Assembly (NCBI GenBank): GCA_963920525.1
Contig: OY986438.1
Location: forward strand, 79,641,177 to 79,705,176
Origin: Dichetophora obliterata
Lineage: Eukaryota > Arthropoda > Insecta > Diptera > Sciomyzidae
Direction: 5' to 3'
Length of the DNA stretch: 64,000 bases
Shown: one piece after another, positions 1,990 through 41,380 of the stretch
How the letters are laid out: each line of letters starts with the position of its first letter
How positions within the stretch are numbered: position 1 is the first letter of the stretch
Program-made: the position numbers and the translations under genes
Notes under the pieces: generated by a model
The model's database searches: none
The model's input: only the letters and a program-made list of their open reading frames with translations
Told to the model about the DNA's origin: nothing

Positions 1990-2521
1990 TTTATAGTAAT
2001 GCCTAGCAGACGTTGTCCTGCCGCAGACCACCTTACTGCTACATACGAATTTTCATGCTGTTCGGAAAATATATTTATATATTCGCCATTTTTAGTACAG
2101 TTGCCGAAAGTAGCCGTATGAACTAAAATTACAAATTTTAGCCTAATACGACCAAAACCATTCGAAGTATGACATTTTTGATTAATTCTGGGAGGTAACG
2201 GGGGTGTGGCAAAATTTTTTCAATTAAACCCTCTCATACTCGAAACAATAGAATGCCAGAATTTCAGCTCAATTGAGCTTAAACCCAGTGCGCTTTGCTT
2301 TGCTCCAAACTTATCTCCCGAAAGTGGACTTAACTAAAGTGGGTCATGCCCATTTTTAGTCAAGTTAGCGAAAGTAACCATACAACGTAGATTACCAAAT
2401 TCTAGTCGCATACGACCAAAATCGTCTGAAATATAGCATTTTTTGCAAAAAGTGAGCATTTAAATTAGACGTGGCAAATCGAACATAACATATTACCACT
2501 GAGCATATAATATATAGGGGA
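1990..2521 (-). repeat. DINE-type Helitron repeat
   Basis: The segment shares phrases with 55,650-56,540 and 63,670-63,840. Examples are TTTTTAGTACAGTTGCCGA, a run reading TACGACCAAAACCGT, and a GGTAA...GTGTGGCAAAATTTTT block followed by a TTTCAGCTCAATTG phrase. These are the repeated body blocks of non-autonomous Helitrons as seen in flies. Two successive units are present (about 2,080-2,330 and 2,350-2,520). The 5' terminus is uncertain. Confidence 0.6.
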
Positions 2522-2700
2522 CTCAAACCGCATAAAAATGTGTTCCTATGGAAATTGTACGCAGTGGCTCCCACACTCTCACTTACTCTCACTTGCTCTT
2601 GCTTTCAAACGAACATAACTTCGTATTTTCATTGCCGTAGCTACCACGATAGGTAGCATTAATTTTGTAATTGTAAGCAATGAGCGCATTGTTTTTGCAT
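2522..2700 (-). repeat. Interspersed repeat, inverted copy at 14,780-14,935
   Basis: The sequence around AAAAATGTGTTCCTATG, then CACACTCTCACTTACTCTC and CATTGCCGTAGCTACC, recurs as its reverse complement at 14,780-14,935. I do not recognise the family and see no coding frame. Confidence 0.6.
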
Positions 2701-3171
2701 GAAGCCTGTCTTGCTGTGTTGTTGTTGATCGCAAATAAATGGAAAATGAATAAAGACAAAGTGTTTTGAATATTGTGGATTCAGCATTTTATGGCTTTGT
2801 GATTATGCATATTTTCCATTTTGTATGTTGTGAAGGACAAAATCAGTTTAATTTTGACCACACATGTGGGCCGCTACAACTTGCATTTATTTTTTTATTA
2901 ACATTGAATAAATTCATTAGTTTTGTATTTATTACCACTTGAAGTTTTTCACCATAATAATTAAATTAATTAATTAAATTAATTTTGTATTGATTAAGGT
3001 TTAAGATAATATTTTTAATATAAGTTAAAAGAGTTTATGTTACTCTAATGTAGTCATAAGCACACGATCAGCTGGAGCTGACATGCAGCTGCATAGCACA
3101 CAAAAGCTGTTGATGTCAACCGATGGAAGAATAGAGAAAAGAGCTTACAGTGAAAAGCTCTTTCGCTAGCA

Positions 3172-3206
3172 TATAAATAGCGGCGCTCTGTTAGAATTAG
3201 TCAGTT
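3172..3206 (+). promoter_or_regulatory. LTR core promoter: TATA box and TCAGTT initiator
   Basis: TATAAATAG at 3,172-3,180 is followed by TCAGTT at 3,201-3,206. The spacing of about 31 bases from the TATA start to the initiator A is the arthropod norm. GAGCAGCCGTCGTGG shortly downstream is also conserved in all the right-LTR copies. Confidence 0.85.
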
Positions 3207-3261
3207 CTTTTTGAGCAGCCGTCGTGGTAAGTCATACTGTAGGCAATATAGACAGTAGTTA

Positions 3262-3960
3262 GTGACCTAAGGAAATATGTGTTCCACTGGTCGTAGATTG
3301 TAGTATACTAGAATAGGAAAATGAGAGGGGGAAGACCTAAGGAAATATGTGTTCCACTGGTCGCAGATTGTAGTATACTATAATAGGAAAGCAACAAGCG
3401 GGAAGACCTAAGGAAATATGTGTTCCACTGGTCATATATTGCAGTAGAGTGAGCGAGACTATTTAAGAGAGCAAGAGTTGCCTTAGTCAAGCGAGAGGGG
3501 GAAGACCTAAGGAAATATGTGTTCCACTGGTCATATATTGCAGTCGAGTAAGCGAGACTAATTGTGAGAGCAAGAGTTGCCTTAGTCAAGCGAGAGGGGG
3601 AATACCTAAGGAAATATGTGTTCCACTGGTCATATATTGCAGTAGAAGGAGCGAGACTATTTAAGAGAGCAAGAGTTGCCTTAGTCAAGCGAGAGGGGGA
3701 AGACTTAAGGAAATATGTGTTCCACTGGTCATATATTGTATTAGAGTAAGTGAGACTATGTTAAGAGAGTAAGAGTTGTCTTAGTCAAAAGAGAGGGGGA
3801 AGACCTAAAGAAATATATGTTCCACTGGTCATCTATTGTAATAGAGTGAGATTATTTTCGAGAGAGTAAGAATTGGTTCATTCTATTTCTCACTAGAAAG
3901 ACATAAGGAAATATGTAAAGGGAAAGACATAAGGAAATATGTGTTCCACTGGTCAGAGAG
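3262..3960 (+). repeat. Tandem units in the 5' LTR (CTAAGGAAATATGTGTTCC)
   Basis: About nine copies of a core reading CTAAGGAAATATGTGTTCC, followed by ACTGGTC, are spaced about 70-100 bases apart. The spacers carry related phrases (AAGAGAGCAAGAGTTGCC, TCAAGCGAGAGGGGGAAGAC). The apparent protein frame on the minus strand (3,308-3,688) only reflects the repeat period. Units differ by single changes and small indels, and one near 3,903 is truncated. Confidence 0.9.
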
Positions 3961-34231: not shown

Positions 34232-34304
34232 GCCTTTGTAGTCTAGTGGAGAGTGCGCTAGGCTATCAACCCAGAGGTCCCTGGTTCGAATCCGGGTTCG
34301 GGCT
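34232..34304 (+). tRNA. tRNA-like sequence, probably pseudogene or SINE head
   Basis: A 73-base cloverleaf-like block has an A-box-like TAGTCTAGTGG and a perfect B-box GGTTCGAATCC with a paired T stem (CCTGG/CCGGG). The anticodon arm CTAGG-CTATCAA-CCCAG has one mismatch and would give anticodon ATC (Asp codon family), an unusual choice. The acceptor stem has at least two mismatches. These defects argue for a pseudogene or a tRNA-derived SINE rather than a working tRNA. Confidence 0.5.
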
Positions 34305-34559: not shown

Positions 34560-36402
34560 AGGTCAAAGAACAAAGCAGCTACACATTCTTCCTCGACTCT
34601 TTCTTTTTCTCCACCTCCAGCTTCTCTCTCCGTTAAAACAAACGAGCTACCAGCTGCTACTCATGTCACTGCACCTCGCAAATTGATCCATCAGTTCGGA
34701 ACCTCATGGACATCATCCGAATGGGATAGCAGGATCAAAAAATTAGAGAGCGTGAACAAAAGTTTTAAAACTACATTGTTTATTAAAGGCGTAGCAGTAA
34801 AAACAAGCGTATCCTGGATGCAAAATTACTTTGGAAGGAAATTCGGTATCGCAATTTCTAACTACTGGAAGTCGTCTTCCAAGGCCAGGAAATTATGCAA
34901 TTTTAAACTTAATATTCCAACTGAATATTCCTGAAATCCTCTGGTGACAGTGTGTTGCATGGCCAGTGGATAATTTCCGAATGGATGGATAAGCCTGGAA
35001 ATAAGCCGATGACACGTATATCTAGCAGCGAGAACAACAGATTTTCTTATTCTAATTCTAATAACAAGTCTAATAACTACACAAAAAACTACCAGTAAGC
35101 CTAGAAATAATGCTAGCTCTAATTCTACTTCGTATTTTAATTCTGCGTACAACTCTACTTTTAACTCTAGCATTAAATCCAATTCACACTCAAACTTTAA
35201 CTCTACGTTAAATTTTAAGCCTTTTACCGTCCCTAATTCTAATTCTAACTCTAATAATAATTGTAATAATAATTATTCTCATAGCAATAATTCTAGTTCG
35301 ATTGCTAATACAAATACATATTACCCTTTTTCGAAGTCTTATTCTTATTCAAGAAATACTATACTTAATTAAACATTAATTTGACGTATCATGTCTCCAA
35401 ACCGTCCTTAAAAAGATTACCTAATTCCCGTCCTAGCGCTGACCCCAATTGGAATCTTAAAACCAATATCTTTCCTATTTTTACTCCTCAAATATATGCT
35501 TATTCGAATCGAATAATTTATTCTCTTCAGCTCTCTCACCCCAAACGAGTCTCATTCAATCTTAATACTAACTTAGACACACCAGCAAAAAAAATGAGAG
35601 TAACATACTCCATCCTAACTTTGTCCATTCCCATACTCTAAAACCATCTCCTTCTGTTCCAGTCACAAGTGGAGCCTCTAATCAAGCTGGTAGCCTCACA
35701 TCTTTCATAGACCCTCTTCTCTTTCTCGCCTAAGAGAGACTAGTGTCTACAACAATGTGCATCTGTATCTTGCTTACTTGCATAAAGCACCGGTCTCTTC
35801 CTGTATAGAAGGCAAGACCAAGACAAACCTCAAAGCCTTGATTCAGCAAGAAGGTCTACCTACTGATGTCGATGAATTGAGCCAATTATTTACCAGATTC
35901 CACGTGCAACTTGGCTTGACGAGCCATCAAGTCAAAGAAGATCTTGACACATATGCTACTCACATATGCCTGTGAGGTCAAAACATATATATTATCTTTA
36001 AAAGTCCCGTAAAGAGCAGCAACAATATTATGCCCAATCAAAACCCCATTCCATTTTTTGTCACTCTTTACTACCAAAATGTAAGAATATCATGCACCAA
36101 AATCTCTACAGTGTTCCTTAATTCACTTAAGCTTCCCTACGACATATTTGCCCTTACCGAGACCAATCTTACGCCCGACTTCAAGGATATTGAGGTTTTT
36201 GCATCCGATTTCGTGGTTTTCAGAGACGATGGTCTCGACAAAGATGATCTCTCCTCAGGTCGTGGCGTCCTTCTTGCTATTCACAATCGCTTCGATCCAA
36301 CCTTTATAAAAAATTCCACACTGCTAACGTTGAATTTATATGCGCCAAAGTTTGCATCGCAAAACGAAATATATTCATTATCTGCTATTATATTCACCCG
36401 TC
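34560..36402 (+). pseudogene. Non-LTR retrotransposon, ORF1-like and endonuclease N-terminal part
   Basis: A frame from about 34,563 to 34,934 (serine/proline-rich, then WTSSEWDSRI...) and scattered later frames (35,381-35,641, 35,757-35,975) look like a decayed ORF1. From 36,030 a second frame reads YYQNVR, then DIFALTETNLTPD, DFVVFRDD and GRGVLLAIHNRF. This is the start of an apurinic-type endonuclease as in Jockey/I-type elements. The frame is cut at 36,402 by the Polinton-like insertion and resumes at 40,697. Asn/Ser-rich coding-like repeats lie between 35,040 and 35,370. Confidence 0.7.
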
Positions 36403-37395
36403 AATAGAGTAGCTATGACAGTTCTAATCCAAAAACGCGTGTATTTCCTTATGGGCCTCCAAATTCACAAAATTGTGAGGTGCAGCGCAGTCGGCGTCGT
36501 ACGATCGGTCAAGTTGGCCGATAGTAGGGTGGCTGAAGCGTGTTGTTGTTGTTGCAAATTGGCGATAAGCATGCAAGATGTACGGACGGAGGGATAGCTA
36601 GGGGGGTATGATTGGTCAAGCTAGCTGAAGTAGGATAGCTGGAGCGTGTTGTTGTCGTTATGAATTGGAGATAAGCATGCAATACAGGCAGATGGACGGA
36701 CGGACGGATAGATGTTGTTGCTATAAATCAAAACCGCAAGTTTAAGCTATGGAAACAGTGCAGAAGTAAAATATTTTTTATTTTTCCCATGCTTGTTTAA
36801 TATGTTTATGAATTTAAGTATTCACAAAAATTTCAAGTTAAATGTGATAAGCCTTCGGCTTCATAGTAAGCATAATAAGCGGACCCAAACCGCAAGTTTA
36901 AGATAAGGCAGCAAGGTAGTTGTTAAGCATTTTAATAAATTTAATATGAGTTGGTTGACTAATGTAAAGACAAAGTATGGAAGCAGCAAAGGCGGCTGCG
37001 ACGGCTGCGGGGGTTAATGATAAAATTAAGCTAGAGAGTCAAAACGTCATCATAAGCATGACCATACTCAACTGTGCCGTTATAAATAAAGCAAAACGAG
37101 CTGATTTATATATGAATCATTATTGTTCTTTTATTGATTTGTTATATATAAATTGTGAAAAAAATTGATTTTGTATTTAAATTATTCTTATGATTTTATT
37201 TGTTAGAGGAGTGTATGGACTACCAAACAGTAAGCTGACGTTTTGTCTGGAATCGGTTTGTTTGCTTCGGTGTAAAACTCAATTCGTACATCAATAGGTC
37301 CTGTTTTAACTGCGTTATTTTGATGTGTTACATCAACAACAATAAGCGGTGCTGTTGCCTTATATTCATCAACATTGAGCGGATGTTGTGGAATT
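36403..37395 (+). repeat. Left terminal inverted repeat of the Polinton-like element
   Basis: The outer 300 bases (for example CAGTTCTAATCCAAAAACGC and GGTGCAGCGCAGTCGGCGTC) match the reverse complement of the right end closely. The inner part matches with gaps (GCATTTTAATAAATTTAATA, TGACTAATGTAAAGACAAAG) and reaches into a copy of the capsid gene's 3' end. The outer part also holds imperfect direct repeats (TAGCTGAAG...GCGTGTTGTTG and GATAAGCATGCAA, twice each). Confidence 0.85.
37180..37395 (-). pseudogene. Duplicated 3' end of the capsid gene in the left arm
   Basis: The minus strand reads EYKATAPLIVVDVTHQN, then KTGPIDVRIEFYTE, nearly identical to residues about 345-395 of the 406-codon ORF. 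A 16-base deletion after the VVH codons shifts the frame and stops it. It lies next to the 3' end of the 269-codon ORF and exists because the terminal repeat extends into the coding region. Confidence 0.85.
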
Positions 37396-37418
37396 TATAG
37401 CGTAAATGATCATTATTT

Positions 37419-38228
37419 TTACTCTGGCTTAAAGTGAAGTCTTATAGAAAATTTTTCCCCTCGAAAATTAATAAGGTCACCGTCTTGATTTAAGACTTTT
37501 ATCATTATGCTGTTTATTTGTTGACAGTTGACGGGTAAGTAAATGACATTTCGAGGTTTTTCATTTATTTTATATCCTGGTGAGACATCGAGAGGAAATT
37601 CGTGAATTGTATGAACTGATGTGTTGTTAATATATGATCCGGTTGTCAAGTTGCATTCAATTCGTATTGTGTTAATATTTGTAATATTTAAAGGTAAATC
37701 AGATTCAAACTTTTTTCTAGTTTTATCTGACTGACCTATATGTATATATTCCGTTTTTTCTATCTCTTGTAACGGATCTATAGGAACAACTTCTATAAAT
37801 TCCTCATACGCCAACTCATTTACTATCAACTTTCTTATACTGAATCCCAGCACCTGTCCTATACTGTTTGGTTTTGAAAAATCTATGTCCACGGAGGATA
37901 CAATTTCAATTTTAAGAGTGTTGTTTTTTGATTTAATTTCCAGGAAAATTGAATCATCAAGGTCTCTTACGGCTGATTTCAAGAAAAACCCAATATCCTC
38001 AAATTCATATGAACCAACTGGTATTGTAATAGTATGCGGCCCAATATGAAATAAATTGTTGTGGACATCTACATTGGGTATAGAATTAAATGTTACAAAG
38101 TCTACAAGTCCGCAAACATATTTTGTTGACAATTCAATTGGTGGAAAATATTTTCCAATAAGAGTTGACGTGGTTCCGCTTAAAGAGATTGTTATAGACA
38201 TTATGAGTAGTCGTAATGAACTGAGCAT
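37419..38228 (-). CDS. Penton/minor-capsid-like protein (inferred)
   Basis: An intact ORF of 269 codons. ATGs at 38,228 and 38,201 are both possible; the second (MSITISLSG) begins at the more conserved-looking segment. Blocks reading GKYFPPIELS, CGLVDF, SIPNVD, ITIPVGSYEFEDIG and, near the end, VIYLPVN and INFRGE..SIRLHF suggest a beta-sheet-rich protein. I recall these as typical of the partner capsid proteins that accompany the major capsid gene in animal Polintons/adintoviruses, where such a protein would form the capsid vertices. This assignment is from memory and context. It has no signal peptide or membrane segment. It is transcribed away from the 406-codon gene across a shared 564-base spacer. 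Confidence 0.6.
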   Translation of the reverse strand: MLSSLRLLIMSITISLSGTTSTLIGKYFPPIELSTKYVCGLVDFVTFNSIPNVDVHNNLFHIGPHTITIPVGSYEFEDIGFFLKSAVRDLDDSIFLEIKSKNNTLKIEIVSSVDIDFSKPNSIGQVLGFSIRKLIVNELAYEEFIEVVPIDPLQEIEKTEYIHIGQSDKTRKKFESDLPLNITNINTIRIECNLTTGSYINNTSVHTIHEFPLDVSPGYKINEKPRNVIYLPVNCQQINSIMIKVLNQDGDLINFRGEKFSIRLHFKPE

Positions 38229-38792
38229 CTATACATATTTTCCCCCGATTTAGTATTAAATAATTACTAAAATAGTTTACAATTTTCTTTATTCATATTC
38301 AAATTAAATTTTACTCAAAACATGAAGATAATAACTGATACTGATAGTGATATTGATACTTATCTGATATTGATGCTGATACTGATCGGATGCTGATACT
38401 TATCTGATACTGATCTGATACTGATCTGATACTGATCAGATACTGATCTGATACTGATCTGATACTGATCTGATACTGTTCTGATGCTAATCTGTTACTG
38501 TAGTAAACAATTTTACAGTTAGATGTAGCAAGTCGTTAACAATTATTAATAACTAGTTGACATTAACTAATTTGTTCATGTCAACATTTTCGATTATTCT
38601 CATAAAAACGATAAATTGATTCTATTTTCATATGTGTGTTTTATTTGGGCGTTTATTACATAGAATAAAAGCATAATTCAAATAGTATTTCCATTTAGTC
38701 CTAAATCAACTCTCGATCGAGGACATATAAAAAGAATCTGTTATCAACATTAAACATAAAAATTGTAAGTTCTTGGGATTTCAGCTTTAATC
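38229..38792. promoter_or_regulatory. Divergent intergenic region of the capsid pair
   Basis: This spacer separates the two divergent ORFs and must hold both start regions if they are expressed. It contains a tandem array of GATCTGATACT-type units at 38,336-38,495 and AT-rich sequence on both sides. ACATATAAAAAGAATC at about 38,724-38,739 is a TATA-like box about 60 bases before the 406-codon ATG. No further gene is seen. Confidence 0.45.
38336..38495. repeat. Tandem GATCTGATACT repeats
   Basis: About a dozen imperfect units of 6-11 bases built from CTGATACTGAT and CTGATCTGATA lie in the middle of the divergent spacer. Confidence 0.85.
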
Positions 38793-40013
38793 ATGAACGA
38801 AATATTAAATGTCCTTAAAAAACCAATATATGATGAGAGTATTATAAAGAGGGATTACCATAGCTACTCTCCATATTTAAAATCATTCAACAATAATGAT
38901 GAGATTCGTATACCAATTCAAAATCAGGACCTCTTTGTCTTACCAAGTGAGAGTATGATTTACATTCATGGCTTCATAGTAAAACGTGAAGGTGGAAAAG
39001 ATGTGGCAACAACAGGTGTGAAATTTAAAAATAACTTTGTGTCATATTTGTTTGACGAAATTCGATATGAAATTAATGGTTTTGAAGTTGATCGTACACG
39101 CAATCTTGGAATTTCATCCACCATGAAAAATTTTGTATCATTGAATAAAGCTGAAAGCGATACATTAAAAAACGCTGGTTGGTGCCCTGATGAAAGTCTT
39201 ACTTTGGAAAAAAATCACTTTAGTTGCTGTATACCACTAAAAATGTTGATGGGATTTGCTGAAGATTACACTAAAATAATATTAAATTCGAAGCATGAGC
39301 TTATCCTTCAACGTTCTTCATCTAATGATAGCTCATATTATCCTACTAATGCCGCAGATCAATTGAAATTGACAATACTGGATATAACATGCAAAATGCC
39401 TCACATACAACTATCGGACTTTTCGAAATTGGAAATGTACAAGATAATTAATAATGAAAACCCTATTTTAATGGCTTTTCGAAGTTGGGACTGTCATGTA
39501 AATCCTAGGATTTCAGAAAGTAAAAGTACAAAGGTTTTATGGAATGTAAAACTGAGTCAGCAAAATGAAAGACCTAGATTTCTTATTATTGGCCTACAAA
39601 ATGAGAGGAGCAAAGAGGAAGGAAATACATTCGACCATTGTAATATAACTAATTTAAAAGTTCATTTAAACTCTGATTCATATCCCTATGATGATTTAAA
39701 TACGCGCTTTGAAATGGGACAGTATGCTATTTTATATGATATGTATGCAAAATTTCAACAAAGTTATTATTATATGCGGGAACCTCAACCATTGCTCAAT
39801 GTTGCTGAATATAAGGCAACAGCGCCGCTTATTGTTGTTGATGTAACACATCAAAATGAAGCAGTTAAAACAGGACCTATTGATGTACGAATTGAGTTTT
39901 ACACCGAAGCAAACAAACCGATTCCAGACAAAACGTCAGCTTACTGTTTGGTAATCCATGATCGTTTAATTGAATACACTCCTCTAACAAAGGAAATCAT
40001 AAGAATTATTTAA
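38793..40013 (+). CDS. Major-capsid-like protein (double jelly-roll type, inferred)
   Basis: An intact ORF of 406 codons from ATG at 38,793. The N-terminal part reads YSPYLKSFNNNDEIRIPI and QNQDLFVLPSESMIYIHG, followed by YLFDEIRYEINGFEVDRTRN. The C-terminal part reads PLIVVDVTHQNEAVKTGPID and SAYCLVIHDRLIEYTPLT. I recall this architecture from proteins annotated as uncharacterised (F54H12.2-like) in many invertebrates and associated with Polinton/Maverick or adintovirus capsids. The role, an inner or outer shell subunit, is inferred. It has no membrane segment. The 3' fifth lies within the right terminal repeat. The absence of stops in 406 codons, amid otherwise decayed elements, suggests a recent insertion or selection. 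Confidence 0.68.
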   Translation: MNEILNVLKKPIYDESIIKRDYHSYSPYLKSFNNNDEIRIPIQNQDLFVLPSESMIYIHGFIVKREGGKDVATTGVKFKNNFVSYLFDEIRYEINGFEVDRTRNLGISSTMKNFVSLNKAESDTLKNAGWCPDESLTLEKNHFSCCIPLKMLMGFAEDYTKIILNSKHELILQRSSSNDSSYYPTNAADQLKLTILDITCKMPHIQLSDFSKLEMYKIINNENPILMAFRSWDCHVNPRISESKSTKVLWNVKLSQQNERPRFLIIGLQNERSKEEGNTFDHCNITNLKVHLNSDSYPYDDLNTRFEMGQYAILYDMYAKFQQSYYYMREPQPLLNVAEYKATAPLIVVDVTHQNEAVKTGPIDVRIEFYTEANKPIPDKTSAYCLVIHDRLIEYTPLTKEIIRII

Positions 40014-40696
40014 ATATAGCAAATCAATAAAAGAACAATAATGATTCATATATAAATCAACTCGTTTTGTTTTATTTATATCAGCATAGTTGCGTATGGT
40101 CATGGTTATGATATCGCTTTCAATCGTTAGCTTAATTTATTCTGCTGCTTTCATACTTTGTTTTTACATTAGTCAGCCAACTTATATTAAATTTATTAAA
40201 ATGCATAACAACTACACTCTTTACTTCTGTACTGTTTCCTTATCTTCAGCTTGCGGTTATGGGTCTGGACTTATCACCTTAATCTTGAAATGCTGATTTA
40301 TAACAACAACAACACCACCGAAGTTTATGTAGCGACTTAAATCTATAAACATTATGCTCGCTTTGAAGCTTGGGCTTATCACCTTCTAGCTATCTCCCCG
40401 TCCGTCCATCCATCTGACTATCTGTCCGACTGTCTGCCCATACGTCTTCTATGCTTGCTTATCTCCCACTTTAGCTAGCTTGACCAATCGTACCCCCCTA
40501 GCTATCCCTCCGTCCGTACATCTTGCATGCTTATCGCCAATTTGCAACAACAACAACACGCTTCAGCCACCCTACTATCGGCCAACTTGACCGATCGTAC
40601 GACGCCGACTGCGCTGCACCTCACAATTTTGTGAATTTGGAGGCGCATAAGGAAATACACGCGTTTTTGGATTAGAACTGTCATAGCTACTCTACT
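39800..40696 (-). repeat. Right terminal inverted repeat of the Polinton-like element
   Basis: Inverted partner of 36,403-37,395. It includes the 3' end of the capsid ORF, a spacer with ATTCATATATAAATCAACTC (shared in inverted form with about 37,098-37,120) and the outer 300-base segment ending at 40,696. Confidence 0.85.
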
Positions 40697-41380
40697 CCCG
40701 TCTCAACCAGTGGTTGTCAGTTTTCAGTAGACGCAATAAATTCACTTTTGGATCTTATGAAAAAATTTGACACCGTTAAATTTCTGGGTGACCTTAATCT
40801 TCCCAACCTTCAATGGGTCTTCTCTGATGACGAATCCTACTATTTTTCTTCAAATCCTACCTCTGAAAAAGAAATTCTGTTCACTAGCTGTATTTCAGAC
40901 TACGGCCTTAGTCGACCGAAGTTACTGACAATTTAGGTAGGCTTCTTCGGATTCAGATAACTGTATAGTATCCGCAAATAACATCATTTTCAACTGATTC
41001 ACACAATGTGTCCCTTTCATCAGACAGAAAAACTTTTCGTCATGTCCTCCCTGGTACAATTAGGAACTACGTGTACTCCGTTACAAAAGAAGCAAACTTT
41101 GGTGCGCATATTTAATTTCTCGTTCTTCTCTGGATCTTCATGCCTATAACCTTTTTTCCGCACTCTGTGAAACGCTATACGAGTCTTATCTTGCTCATAT
41201 TCAAACTTAATTGTTGTCGGATACTAAAAGCTTCTACAAGTTCATCAATATCAAAAGAAAATCTGACATCTACTCTTACTTTTTCCGACACCTCCTCAGA
41301 CAACCTGGAAATAATTGCAAACCTATTTGAAAATTTTTTCAGTCAGTCATGCACAAATCATAACGATGACTAGATTACGA
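40697..41380 (+). pseudogene. Non-LTR endonuclease, continuation after the insertion
   Basis: After the duplicated CCCGTC the endonuclease resumes: LLDLMKKFDTVKFLGDLNLP (GDxN motif, about 40,745-40,810), LQWVFSDDE and a CISDYGLSRP tail, stopped at 40,936. Later phrases (41,180-41,360: TLYESYLAHIQT in one frame, SSDNLEIIANLFENFFSQ in another) look like the linker before the reverse transcriptase. No reverse-transcriptase core follows, so the element ends or is cut by about 41,380. Confidence 0.68.

What the first reader, a model, noticed from the sequence alone, without database searches (positions are those of the whole stretch)
36403..40696. A 4.3-kb Polinton-like element carrying only a divergent pair of capsid-type genes
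Two intact ORFs, 406 codons (+) and 269 codons (-), are transcribed away from each other inside inverted repeats of about 0.9-1 kb, flanked by an exact 6-bp duplication (CCCGTC). Known Polintons/Mavericks are 15-20 kb and carry polymerase B, integrase, ATPase and protease. Here only the capsid-type genes remain. The element therefore looks like a mobile unit that could build particles but depends on helpers for replication and integration, or a domesticable capsid cassette. The seen parts are the TSD, repeats and ORFs; the capsid identity is inferred from recalled protein families.
Basis: partly seen in the sequence, partly recalled or inferred. Interest (0 to 1): 0.93.

Follow-up and report, generated by a model that had tools for sequence, protein, structure and literature searches.

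The report
Capsid-only satellite Polintons in a fly
A small jumping DNA element, present in many copies in what looks like a fly genome, carries only the two genes for a virus shell, appears to keep them intact, and probably borrows its copying and insertion machinery from larger virus-like relatives in the same genome.

The parts
36397..36402 (.). target-site duplication, left copy (CCCGTC)
36403..36635 (+). left terminal inverted repeat (outer 231 nt 98% identical to the right one); begins AATAGAG here, AGTAGA in eight other copies
36636..37391 (-). inner left arm: inverted, gapped copy of the right end of the element
37206..37394 (-). dead remnant of the 3' end of the capsid gene inside the left arm (Pfam DJR 1.8e-16, profile 259-313 of 316; 16-nt deletion)
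37419..38228 (-). penton gene (single jelly-roll minor capsid protein), 269 aa; by comparison with relatives the start is probably the internal ATG at 38201
38334..38500 (.). 11-bp tandem array (consensus ACTGATCTGAT, 15.4 copies) between the two genes; no such array in the class C pieces scanned
38664..38792 (+). capsid-gene upstream region, homologous to that of the full-length Polintons
38793..40013 (+). double-jelly-roll major capsid protein gene, 406 aa (PF21738)
40464..40696 (-). right terminal inverted repeat
40697..40702 (.). target-site duplication, right copy (CCCGTC)

Best explanation
The element is a helper-dependent (non-autonomous) Polinton that carries and preserves only the shell-building genes: a capsid-encoding satellite. 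It most likely arose once from the right end of a full-length Polinton by a copy-back (snap-back) event during strand-displacing replication: the nascent strand copied the right end inward, skipped the body of the capsid gene, copied the penton gene, then switched to the other strand and ran back out through the capsid gene to the same end. Both ends are then the same Polinton end, which a helper's replication protein and integrase can recognise, and each capsid gene survives once, now divergent. It multiplies when a full-length Polinton supplies polymerase and integrase in trans (integration leaves the 6-bp duplication), and makes its own major capsid protein and penton. Purifying selection on those genes among capsid-only copies suggests that its spread depends on the shell, i.e. 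on particles. Shown: anatomy, folds, copies, duplications, coexisting full-length elements, dN/dS. Inferred: copy-back origin, trans-supply, particle formation.
For: Folds; Pfam. Many dispersed copies: 102 of 102 scored matches (1525 first-look candidates), 87 at 92-100% and 15 at 87-88% identity; 73 of the 87 without an internal stop. Own duplications: window plus 8 further window-type copies, 9 of 12 examined, and 2 of 2 class B copies read. No other Polinton gene in the window element: outside the two genes no frame there exceeds 87 codons and four pieces of it gave no Polinton family but the capsid remnant. A polymerase match lies within 18 kb of 1 of 87 close copies but of 9 of the 15 at 87-88% (Fisher p 2e-8). 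Full-length element: about 17.1 kb, duplication CTTCAC, 321-nt ends at 97.8%, A32-like ATPase, rve integrase, weakly protease-like and 1255-aa polymerase-like proteins; 11 stop-free polymerase copies at 100% rounded identity. Mosaic order against the right end of another full-length element: left arm = reverse of its 3550-3295, then reverse of 2162-1312 (penton), array, then forward 2168-3512 (capsid gene). Selection: capsid dN/dS 0.20, 0.16, 0.17 (A-A 66, B-B 45, A-B 120 pairs); penton 0.32 (A-A 15 pairs) and 0.35 (A-B 18 pairs).
Against: No transcript, protein, particle or transposition data. The name 'polymerase' rests on recalled motifs (Pfam gave only Endonuclease_7; no solved relative) and 'protease' on a sub-threshold Peptidase_C48 match. 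A full-length Polinton with window-type (A) ends was neither found nor excluded, because that search did not complete. Match counts come from ranked lists, and only 22 of the 87 close copies were looked at in context, 11 of them from end to end. Four of ten class A pentons are broken and two of twelve class A capsid genes have a stop. The window's capsid protein departs at 2 of 67 conserved columns and its penton at 2 of 50. The array is not more self-complementary than shuffles, so its role as a fold-back point has no support there. Sequence pairs in dN/dS are not independent, and selection could in part have acted in unseen full-length relatives.
Confidence: 0.7

Rival explanations
1. Ordinary deletion derivatives: capsid genes are passengers between two good ends. 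Copies multiply by helper enzymes alone, and the genes look intact only because the copies are young.
For: Non-autonomous elements with intact ends are common among DNA transposons (established knowledge). Class B copies are very similar to each other (MCP dS 0.007). Four of ten class A pentons are broken.
Against: MCP dN/dS 0.16-0.20 within and between A and B, although A and B share the divergent gene order and the central array, so their common ancestor was probably already capsid-only. With 0.87% divergence per arm the chance that both ORFs of the window copy stay open by neutral drift is about 5%, assuming 0.15 indels per substitution.
Confidence: 0.22
2. The divergent arrangement comes from an inversion of the penton segment in a full-length Polinton plus conversion of the left end by the right end, followed by loss of the rest, rather than from a copy-back event. 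(A rival on origin only; it can be true together with the satellite reading.)
For: The two inner junctions use nearly the same point of the full-length relatives (2162 and 2168 in class D; 8839 and 8869 in class C), as an inversion would.
Against: Needs three events and does not explain why the left arm ends in a piece of the capsid gene. Near-perfect palindromes of a polymerase end, with CTGAT/ATCAG repeats at their centre, occur in this genome, so end-palindromes do seem to form.
Confidence: 0.27
3. A host-domesticated capsid cassette.
For: Intact genes under purifying selection.
Against: Dispersed copies; 11 of 11 read at both ends have transposon ends and their own target duplication, and broken copies are among them.
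Confidence: 0.03

Closest known systems
Polintons/Mavericks (Polintoviricetes), animal branch
   Same: 6-bp target duplication and AG-type inverted ends (recalled as family traits), PY-type double-jelly-roll MCP and PX-type penton (Krupovic 2014, PMC4028283, part 1 of 4 of the text read)
   Different: 4.3 kb instead of 15-20 kb; no polymerase, integrase, ATPase or protease; penton inverted relative to MCP; both arms derive from one end
Drosophila-associated adintoviruses 1-3 (PMC8363768, passages read)
   Same: fly-associated; encode capsid proteins
   Different: 13.3-14.6 kb; number 1, and with nearly the same proteins number 2, encodes PolB, integrase, protease and FtsK; not compared here by sequence
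Defective or copy-back genomes of linear protein-primed viruses such as adenovirus (recalled)
   Same: one end duplicated in inverted orientation, helper needed for replication
   Different: inherited in the genome in many copies, with a capsid gene pair under selection
Satellite viruses and virophages (recalled; mavirus structures)
   Same: dependence on a helper; MCP and penton fold relatives
   Different: mavirus has its own polymerase and integrase (recalled); here only the shell is encoded and the candidate helper is a Polinton relative in the same genome
Bidna-like segmented Vesanto virus (PMC8363768, passages read)
   Same: pieces of a few kb (size recalled) with similar inverted ends that divide functions
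   Different: ssDNA, bidnavirus-related; no shared genes shown here

Membership tests
Autonomous Polinton/Maverick | 6-bp target-site duplication | tested here: met
   window and 8 of 8 further window-type copies with both ends read
Autonomous Polinton/Maverick | terminal inverted repeats beginning AG | tested here: met
   AGTAGA at both ends of 8 copies; AATAGA left and AGTAGA right in the window; 231 nt at 98%
Autonomous Polinton/Maverick | length 15-20 kb | tested here: not met
   3879-4322 bp in 8 copies, 4294 in the window
Autonomous Polinton/Maverick | protein-primed DNA polymerase B | tested here: not met
   no room and no ORF for it in the window element
Autonomous Polinton/Maverick | RVE integrase, packaging ATPase, cysteine protease | tested here: not met
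   no such ORF or Pfam match in the window element
Autonomous Polinton/Maverick | double-jelly-roll MCP | tested here: met
Autonomous Polinton/Maverick | single-jelly-roll penton | tested here: met
Non-autonomous Polinton (helper-dependent) | ends shared with an autonomous relative | tested here: inconclusive
   class B ends are 97% identical over 344 nt to those of a 17.5-kb element whose polymerase match has stops; class A shares only a short terminal motif with B and C; the genome search with A ends did not complete
Non-autonomous Polinton (helper-dependent) | mobilised in trans | not testable with these tools
   needs experiment
Polinton-like viruses (PLV) | own non-PolB replication proteins | tested here: not met
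   only two genes present; definition from PMC11071308, passages
Satellite virus | forms particles | not testable with these tools
   inferred only

The most novel reading that the evidence does not exclude
A divided virus living in an animal genome: the capsid-only elements are the shell-building part of a two-part polintovirus system, replicated and integrated by full-length Polintons. They are kept intact because they must be packaged to spread, and they change helper by exchanging their ends (class B = class A capsid core with the ends of another Polinton lineage).
Probability: 0.33. Interest if true: 0.93.

Novelty: new variant of a known kind. Interest (0 to 1): 0.83.

Why it matters
Whether Polintons really make virus particles is an open question, because transposition alone does not need a shell. 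An element that has lost everything except the shell genes, still exists in many dispersed copies and still shows purifying selection on those genes is a strong natural argument that the shell matters for spread. It can be tested directly in one insect. The different ends of classes A and B around one core would also show how such satellites might switch helpers.

Tried and rejected
Relatives in viral contigs: four scans and two scans of prokaryote genome contigs gave nothing, as expected for an insect element. PHROGs gave one weak match, E 0.22. Sequence searches of solved structures with both profiles gave nothing convincing (best for the penton profile E 0.014 to a viral VP2). The idea that the central array is strongly self-complementary failed (3 of 83 8-mers shared with its own reverse complement, shuffled mean 2.0, maximum 14). 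The A-C and B-C rows (0.51) were wrong because of an indel and were replaced by a codon alignment (0.14). The penton B-B comparison is uninformative (3 pairs, no synonymous difference, 2 non-synonymous on average). Pfam did not confirm the two flanks as a LINE endonuclease; that label is recalled from motifs, and the two halves read in different frames after joining. Foldseek against BFVD gave mixed DJR viruses, no closer family.

Rows dropped: copy L040 was left out (3-nt insertion) and put back. From the penton dN/dS the broken pentons L032, L033, L029 and L038 were left out, and of class B only the three copies read in full (L021, L023, L039) were used. Capsid genes of class C entered with codons 1-333 only. 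In some searches the numbers of earlier tables were copied by hand into the script. The spans 17.5, 18.9, 20.7, 27.4 and 36.7 kb and the lengths 17.1 kb (class C) and 4.3 kb (class B) are my arithmetic on the coordinates.
Full report
What is in the window. The element runs from 36403 to 40696 (4294 bp) between two copies of CCCGTC. Its outer 231 nt are 98% identical inverted repeats. Inside are two open genes transcribed apart: 38793-40013 (+, 406 aa) and 37419-38228 (-, 269 aa). Between them lies an 11-bp tandem array (38334-38500, 15.4 copies). Outside the two genes no frame exceeds 87 codons. The inner left arm carries an inverted, damaged copy of the last part of the 406-aa gene: Pfam still recognises it (PF21738, E 1.8e-16, profile 259-313), but it has a 16-nt deletion and changes a conserved glutamate (E in 32 of 33 relatives).

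Copies in the genome. The genome holding the window has 1.31 Gb in 76 contigs. The capsid protein gave 1525 first-look candidates, of which 102 were scored and all matched: 87 at 92-100% identity (73 without an internal stop) and 15 at 87-88% (15 without). I read surroundings of 22 of the 87: twelve window-type (class A) and ten class B; for most of the class B copies this was only 1.5 kb on each side. In class A, the window and eight others show both ends, each with a perfect and different 6-bp duplication and a length of 3879-4322 bp; the other three are interrupted or lack the left part in the stretch read. Capsid genes have no stop in 10 of 12 class A and 10 of 10 class B copies. The penton was found divergent in 10 of 12 class A and 10 of 10 class B copies; it is open in 6 of those 10 class A copies and in 3 of 3 class B copies read in full.

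Class B. It has the same divergent pair and the same kind of array, and is 98.9% identical to class A for 189 nt beyond the capsid stop. Then it is unrelated and ends in a different inverted repeat, with 6-bp duplications in 2 of 2 copies read. A search with that end gave 51 matches (40 of 116 candidates scored). Of the 102 capsid matches, 17 have such an end within 4 kb and 11 have one on both sides, spanning 4041-4592 bp. Three further pairs lie 17.5, 18.9 and 20.7 kb apart and two lie 27.4 and 36.7 kb apart. The 17.5-kb one (class D) contains a polymerase match at 80% identity with three stops. Its right end, read in L046, has penton and capsid genes in tandem and an end 96.8% identical to class B. 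Its capsid gene is only 84% identical to that of the window, so class B looks like a class A core carrying the ends of lineage D.

Class C, the helper candidate. L041, L025 and L026 are adjacent pieces of one element of about 17.1 kb with the duplication CTTCAC and 321-nt ends at 97.8%. It encodes an rve integrase (E 1.6e-14) with a sub-threshold chromodomain match, an A32-like ATPase (E 2e-7), a protein with a sub-threshold Peptidase_C48 match, and a 1255-aa protein that I call protein-primed DNA polymerase B from recalled motifs (Pfam found only Endonuclease_7). Its penton and capsid genes run in tandem. Pieces of a second copy (L027, L028) are 99% identical. Eleven full-length polymerase matches at 100% rounded identity have no stop. 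A polymerase match lies within 18 kb of 9 of the 15 capsid genes at 87-88% but of only 1 of the 87 closer ones (Fisher p 2e-8); the polymerase search scored 37 of 1587 candidates, so this compares two ranked lists. The one exception is a 94%-identical capsid copy with three stops (row 82). Six of the 15 have no polymerase match nearby and were not looked at.

Origin. Against the class D right end, the window element reads: reverse of 3550-3295 (capsid 3' end), reverse of 2162-1847 and 1808-1312 (penton and about 0.1 kb upstream), the array, then forward 2168-3512 (capsid gene with 127 nt upstream). Each gene is kept once and both arms are the same end. A copy-back event during strand-displacing replication gives this in one stroke; inversion plus end conversion is the rival, and the near-coincidence of 2162 and 2168 speaks for it. 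That symmetric end products form here is suggested by polymerase-end palindromes: two loci read have arms 99.95% and 99.99% identical over 8574 and 8737 nt, with CTGAT/ATCAG repeats at their centre. Such arrays are present in the seven class A and B stretches scanned (window, L021, L030, L032, L034, L038, L040) and absent from the class C pieces L025-L028 and L041; the 4-kb class D piece has 7 CTGAT/ATCAG words in all. The outer ends of the palindromes were not reached, and an assembly artefact is not excluded, although two inverted pairs on different contigs share the same gap of 4981 bp.

Selection. Codon-aligned capsid genes give dN/dS 0.20 (A-A, 66 pairs), 0.16 (B-B, 45), 0.17 (A-B, 120), 0.14 (A-C, 24 pairs, first 333 codons) and 0.14 (B-C, 20). 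Pentons give 0.32 (A-A, 15), 0.35 (A-B, 18) and 0.27 (A-C, 12), with broken pentons left out, which favours low values. Pairs are not independent. Because A and B share the divergent core and array, the simplest reading is that selection acted while the lineage was already capsid-only. The window's capsid protein departs at 2 of 67 conserved columns (other rows 0-8) and its penton at 2 of 50 (other rows 0-7).

How it probably works. A full-length Polinton supplies polymerase and integrase; the short terminal motif shared by A, B and C (seen by eye in the ends printed) makes that plausible. The satellite supplies its own MCP and penton. Selection on a shell in an element that cannot copy itself suggests that being packaged, or helping packaging, is what keeps it spreading. 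Replication in trans and particles are inferred.

Literature. Krupovic and others 2014 (PMC4028283, part 1 of 4 read) describe Polintons without capsid genes but, in the part read, none with capsid genes alone; a term search of its whole text showed one passage with 'non-autonomous', about Tlr. Mayetiola Mavericks are fragments with polymerase or integrase only (PMC8504770, passages). Drosophila adintoviruses are 13.3-14.6 kb (PMC8363768, passages). A review of giant transposons (PMC6431247, passages) speaks of nonautonomous elements in general; in the passages shown none is a capsid-only Polinton. Nine searches listed no paper whose title or abstract start describes capsid-only Polintons; the phrases 'nonautonomous Polinton', 'non-autonomous Maverick' and 'mini-polinton' had no occurrence in the 15 papers listed. 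Papers outside this library, and Repbase entries, were not seen.

Noticed in passing
L042/L043 (G000:C1:85000670-85017974), L044/L045 (G000:C1:273678511-273696150): Near-perfect palindromes of a Polinton polymerase end (54% identical to the class C polymerase; exactly 4 TAA in 10 of 13 rows of that identity), centre made of CTGAT/ATCAG repeats; two more inverted pairs at C6:113221231 and C1:253665128. Possibly a second kind of end-derived satellite; outer ends not read.
   Followed up: partly
G000: six of the 15 capsid matches at 87-88% identity (C6:72404406, C6:80076681, C1:293696510, C2:35895445, C4:169499398, C3:151628582): No polymerase match within 18 kb; may be capsid-only or truncated class C derivatives.
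   Followed up: no
P0120 (Glossina fuscipes gene model): A predicted protein that fuses an integrase-core piece (residues 6-74) with the capsid protein (residues 102-410), as if an internal deletion had joined the two genes.
   Followed up: partly
L046 (G000:C2:124083861-124087890) and C2:124071215: Full-length Polinton class D with decayed polymerase but with the ends used by the class B capsid-only copies.
   Followed up: partly
window 36030-36402 and 40703-40936: Flanks look like two halves of an old non-LTR retrotransposon endonuclease frame (recalled motifs; Pfam found nothing).
   Followed up: partly
window 34232-34304: tRNA family match (Rfam RF00005, 35.4 bits).
   Followed up: no
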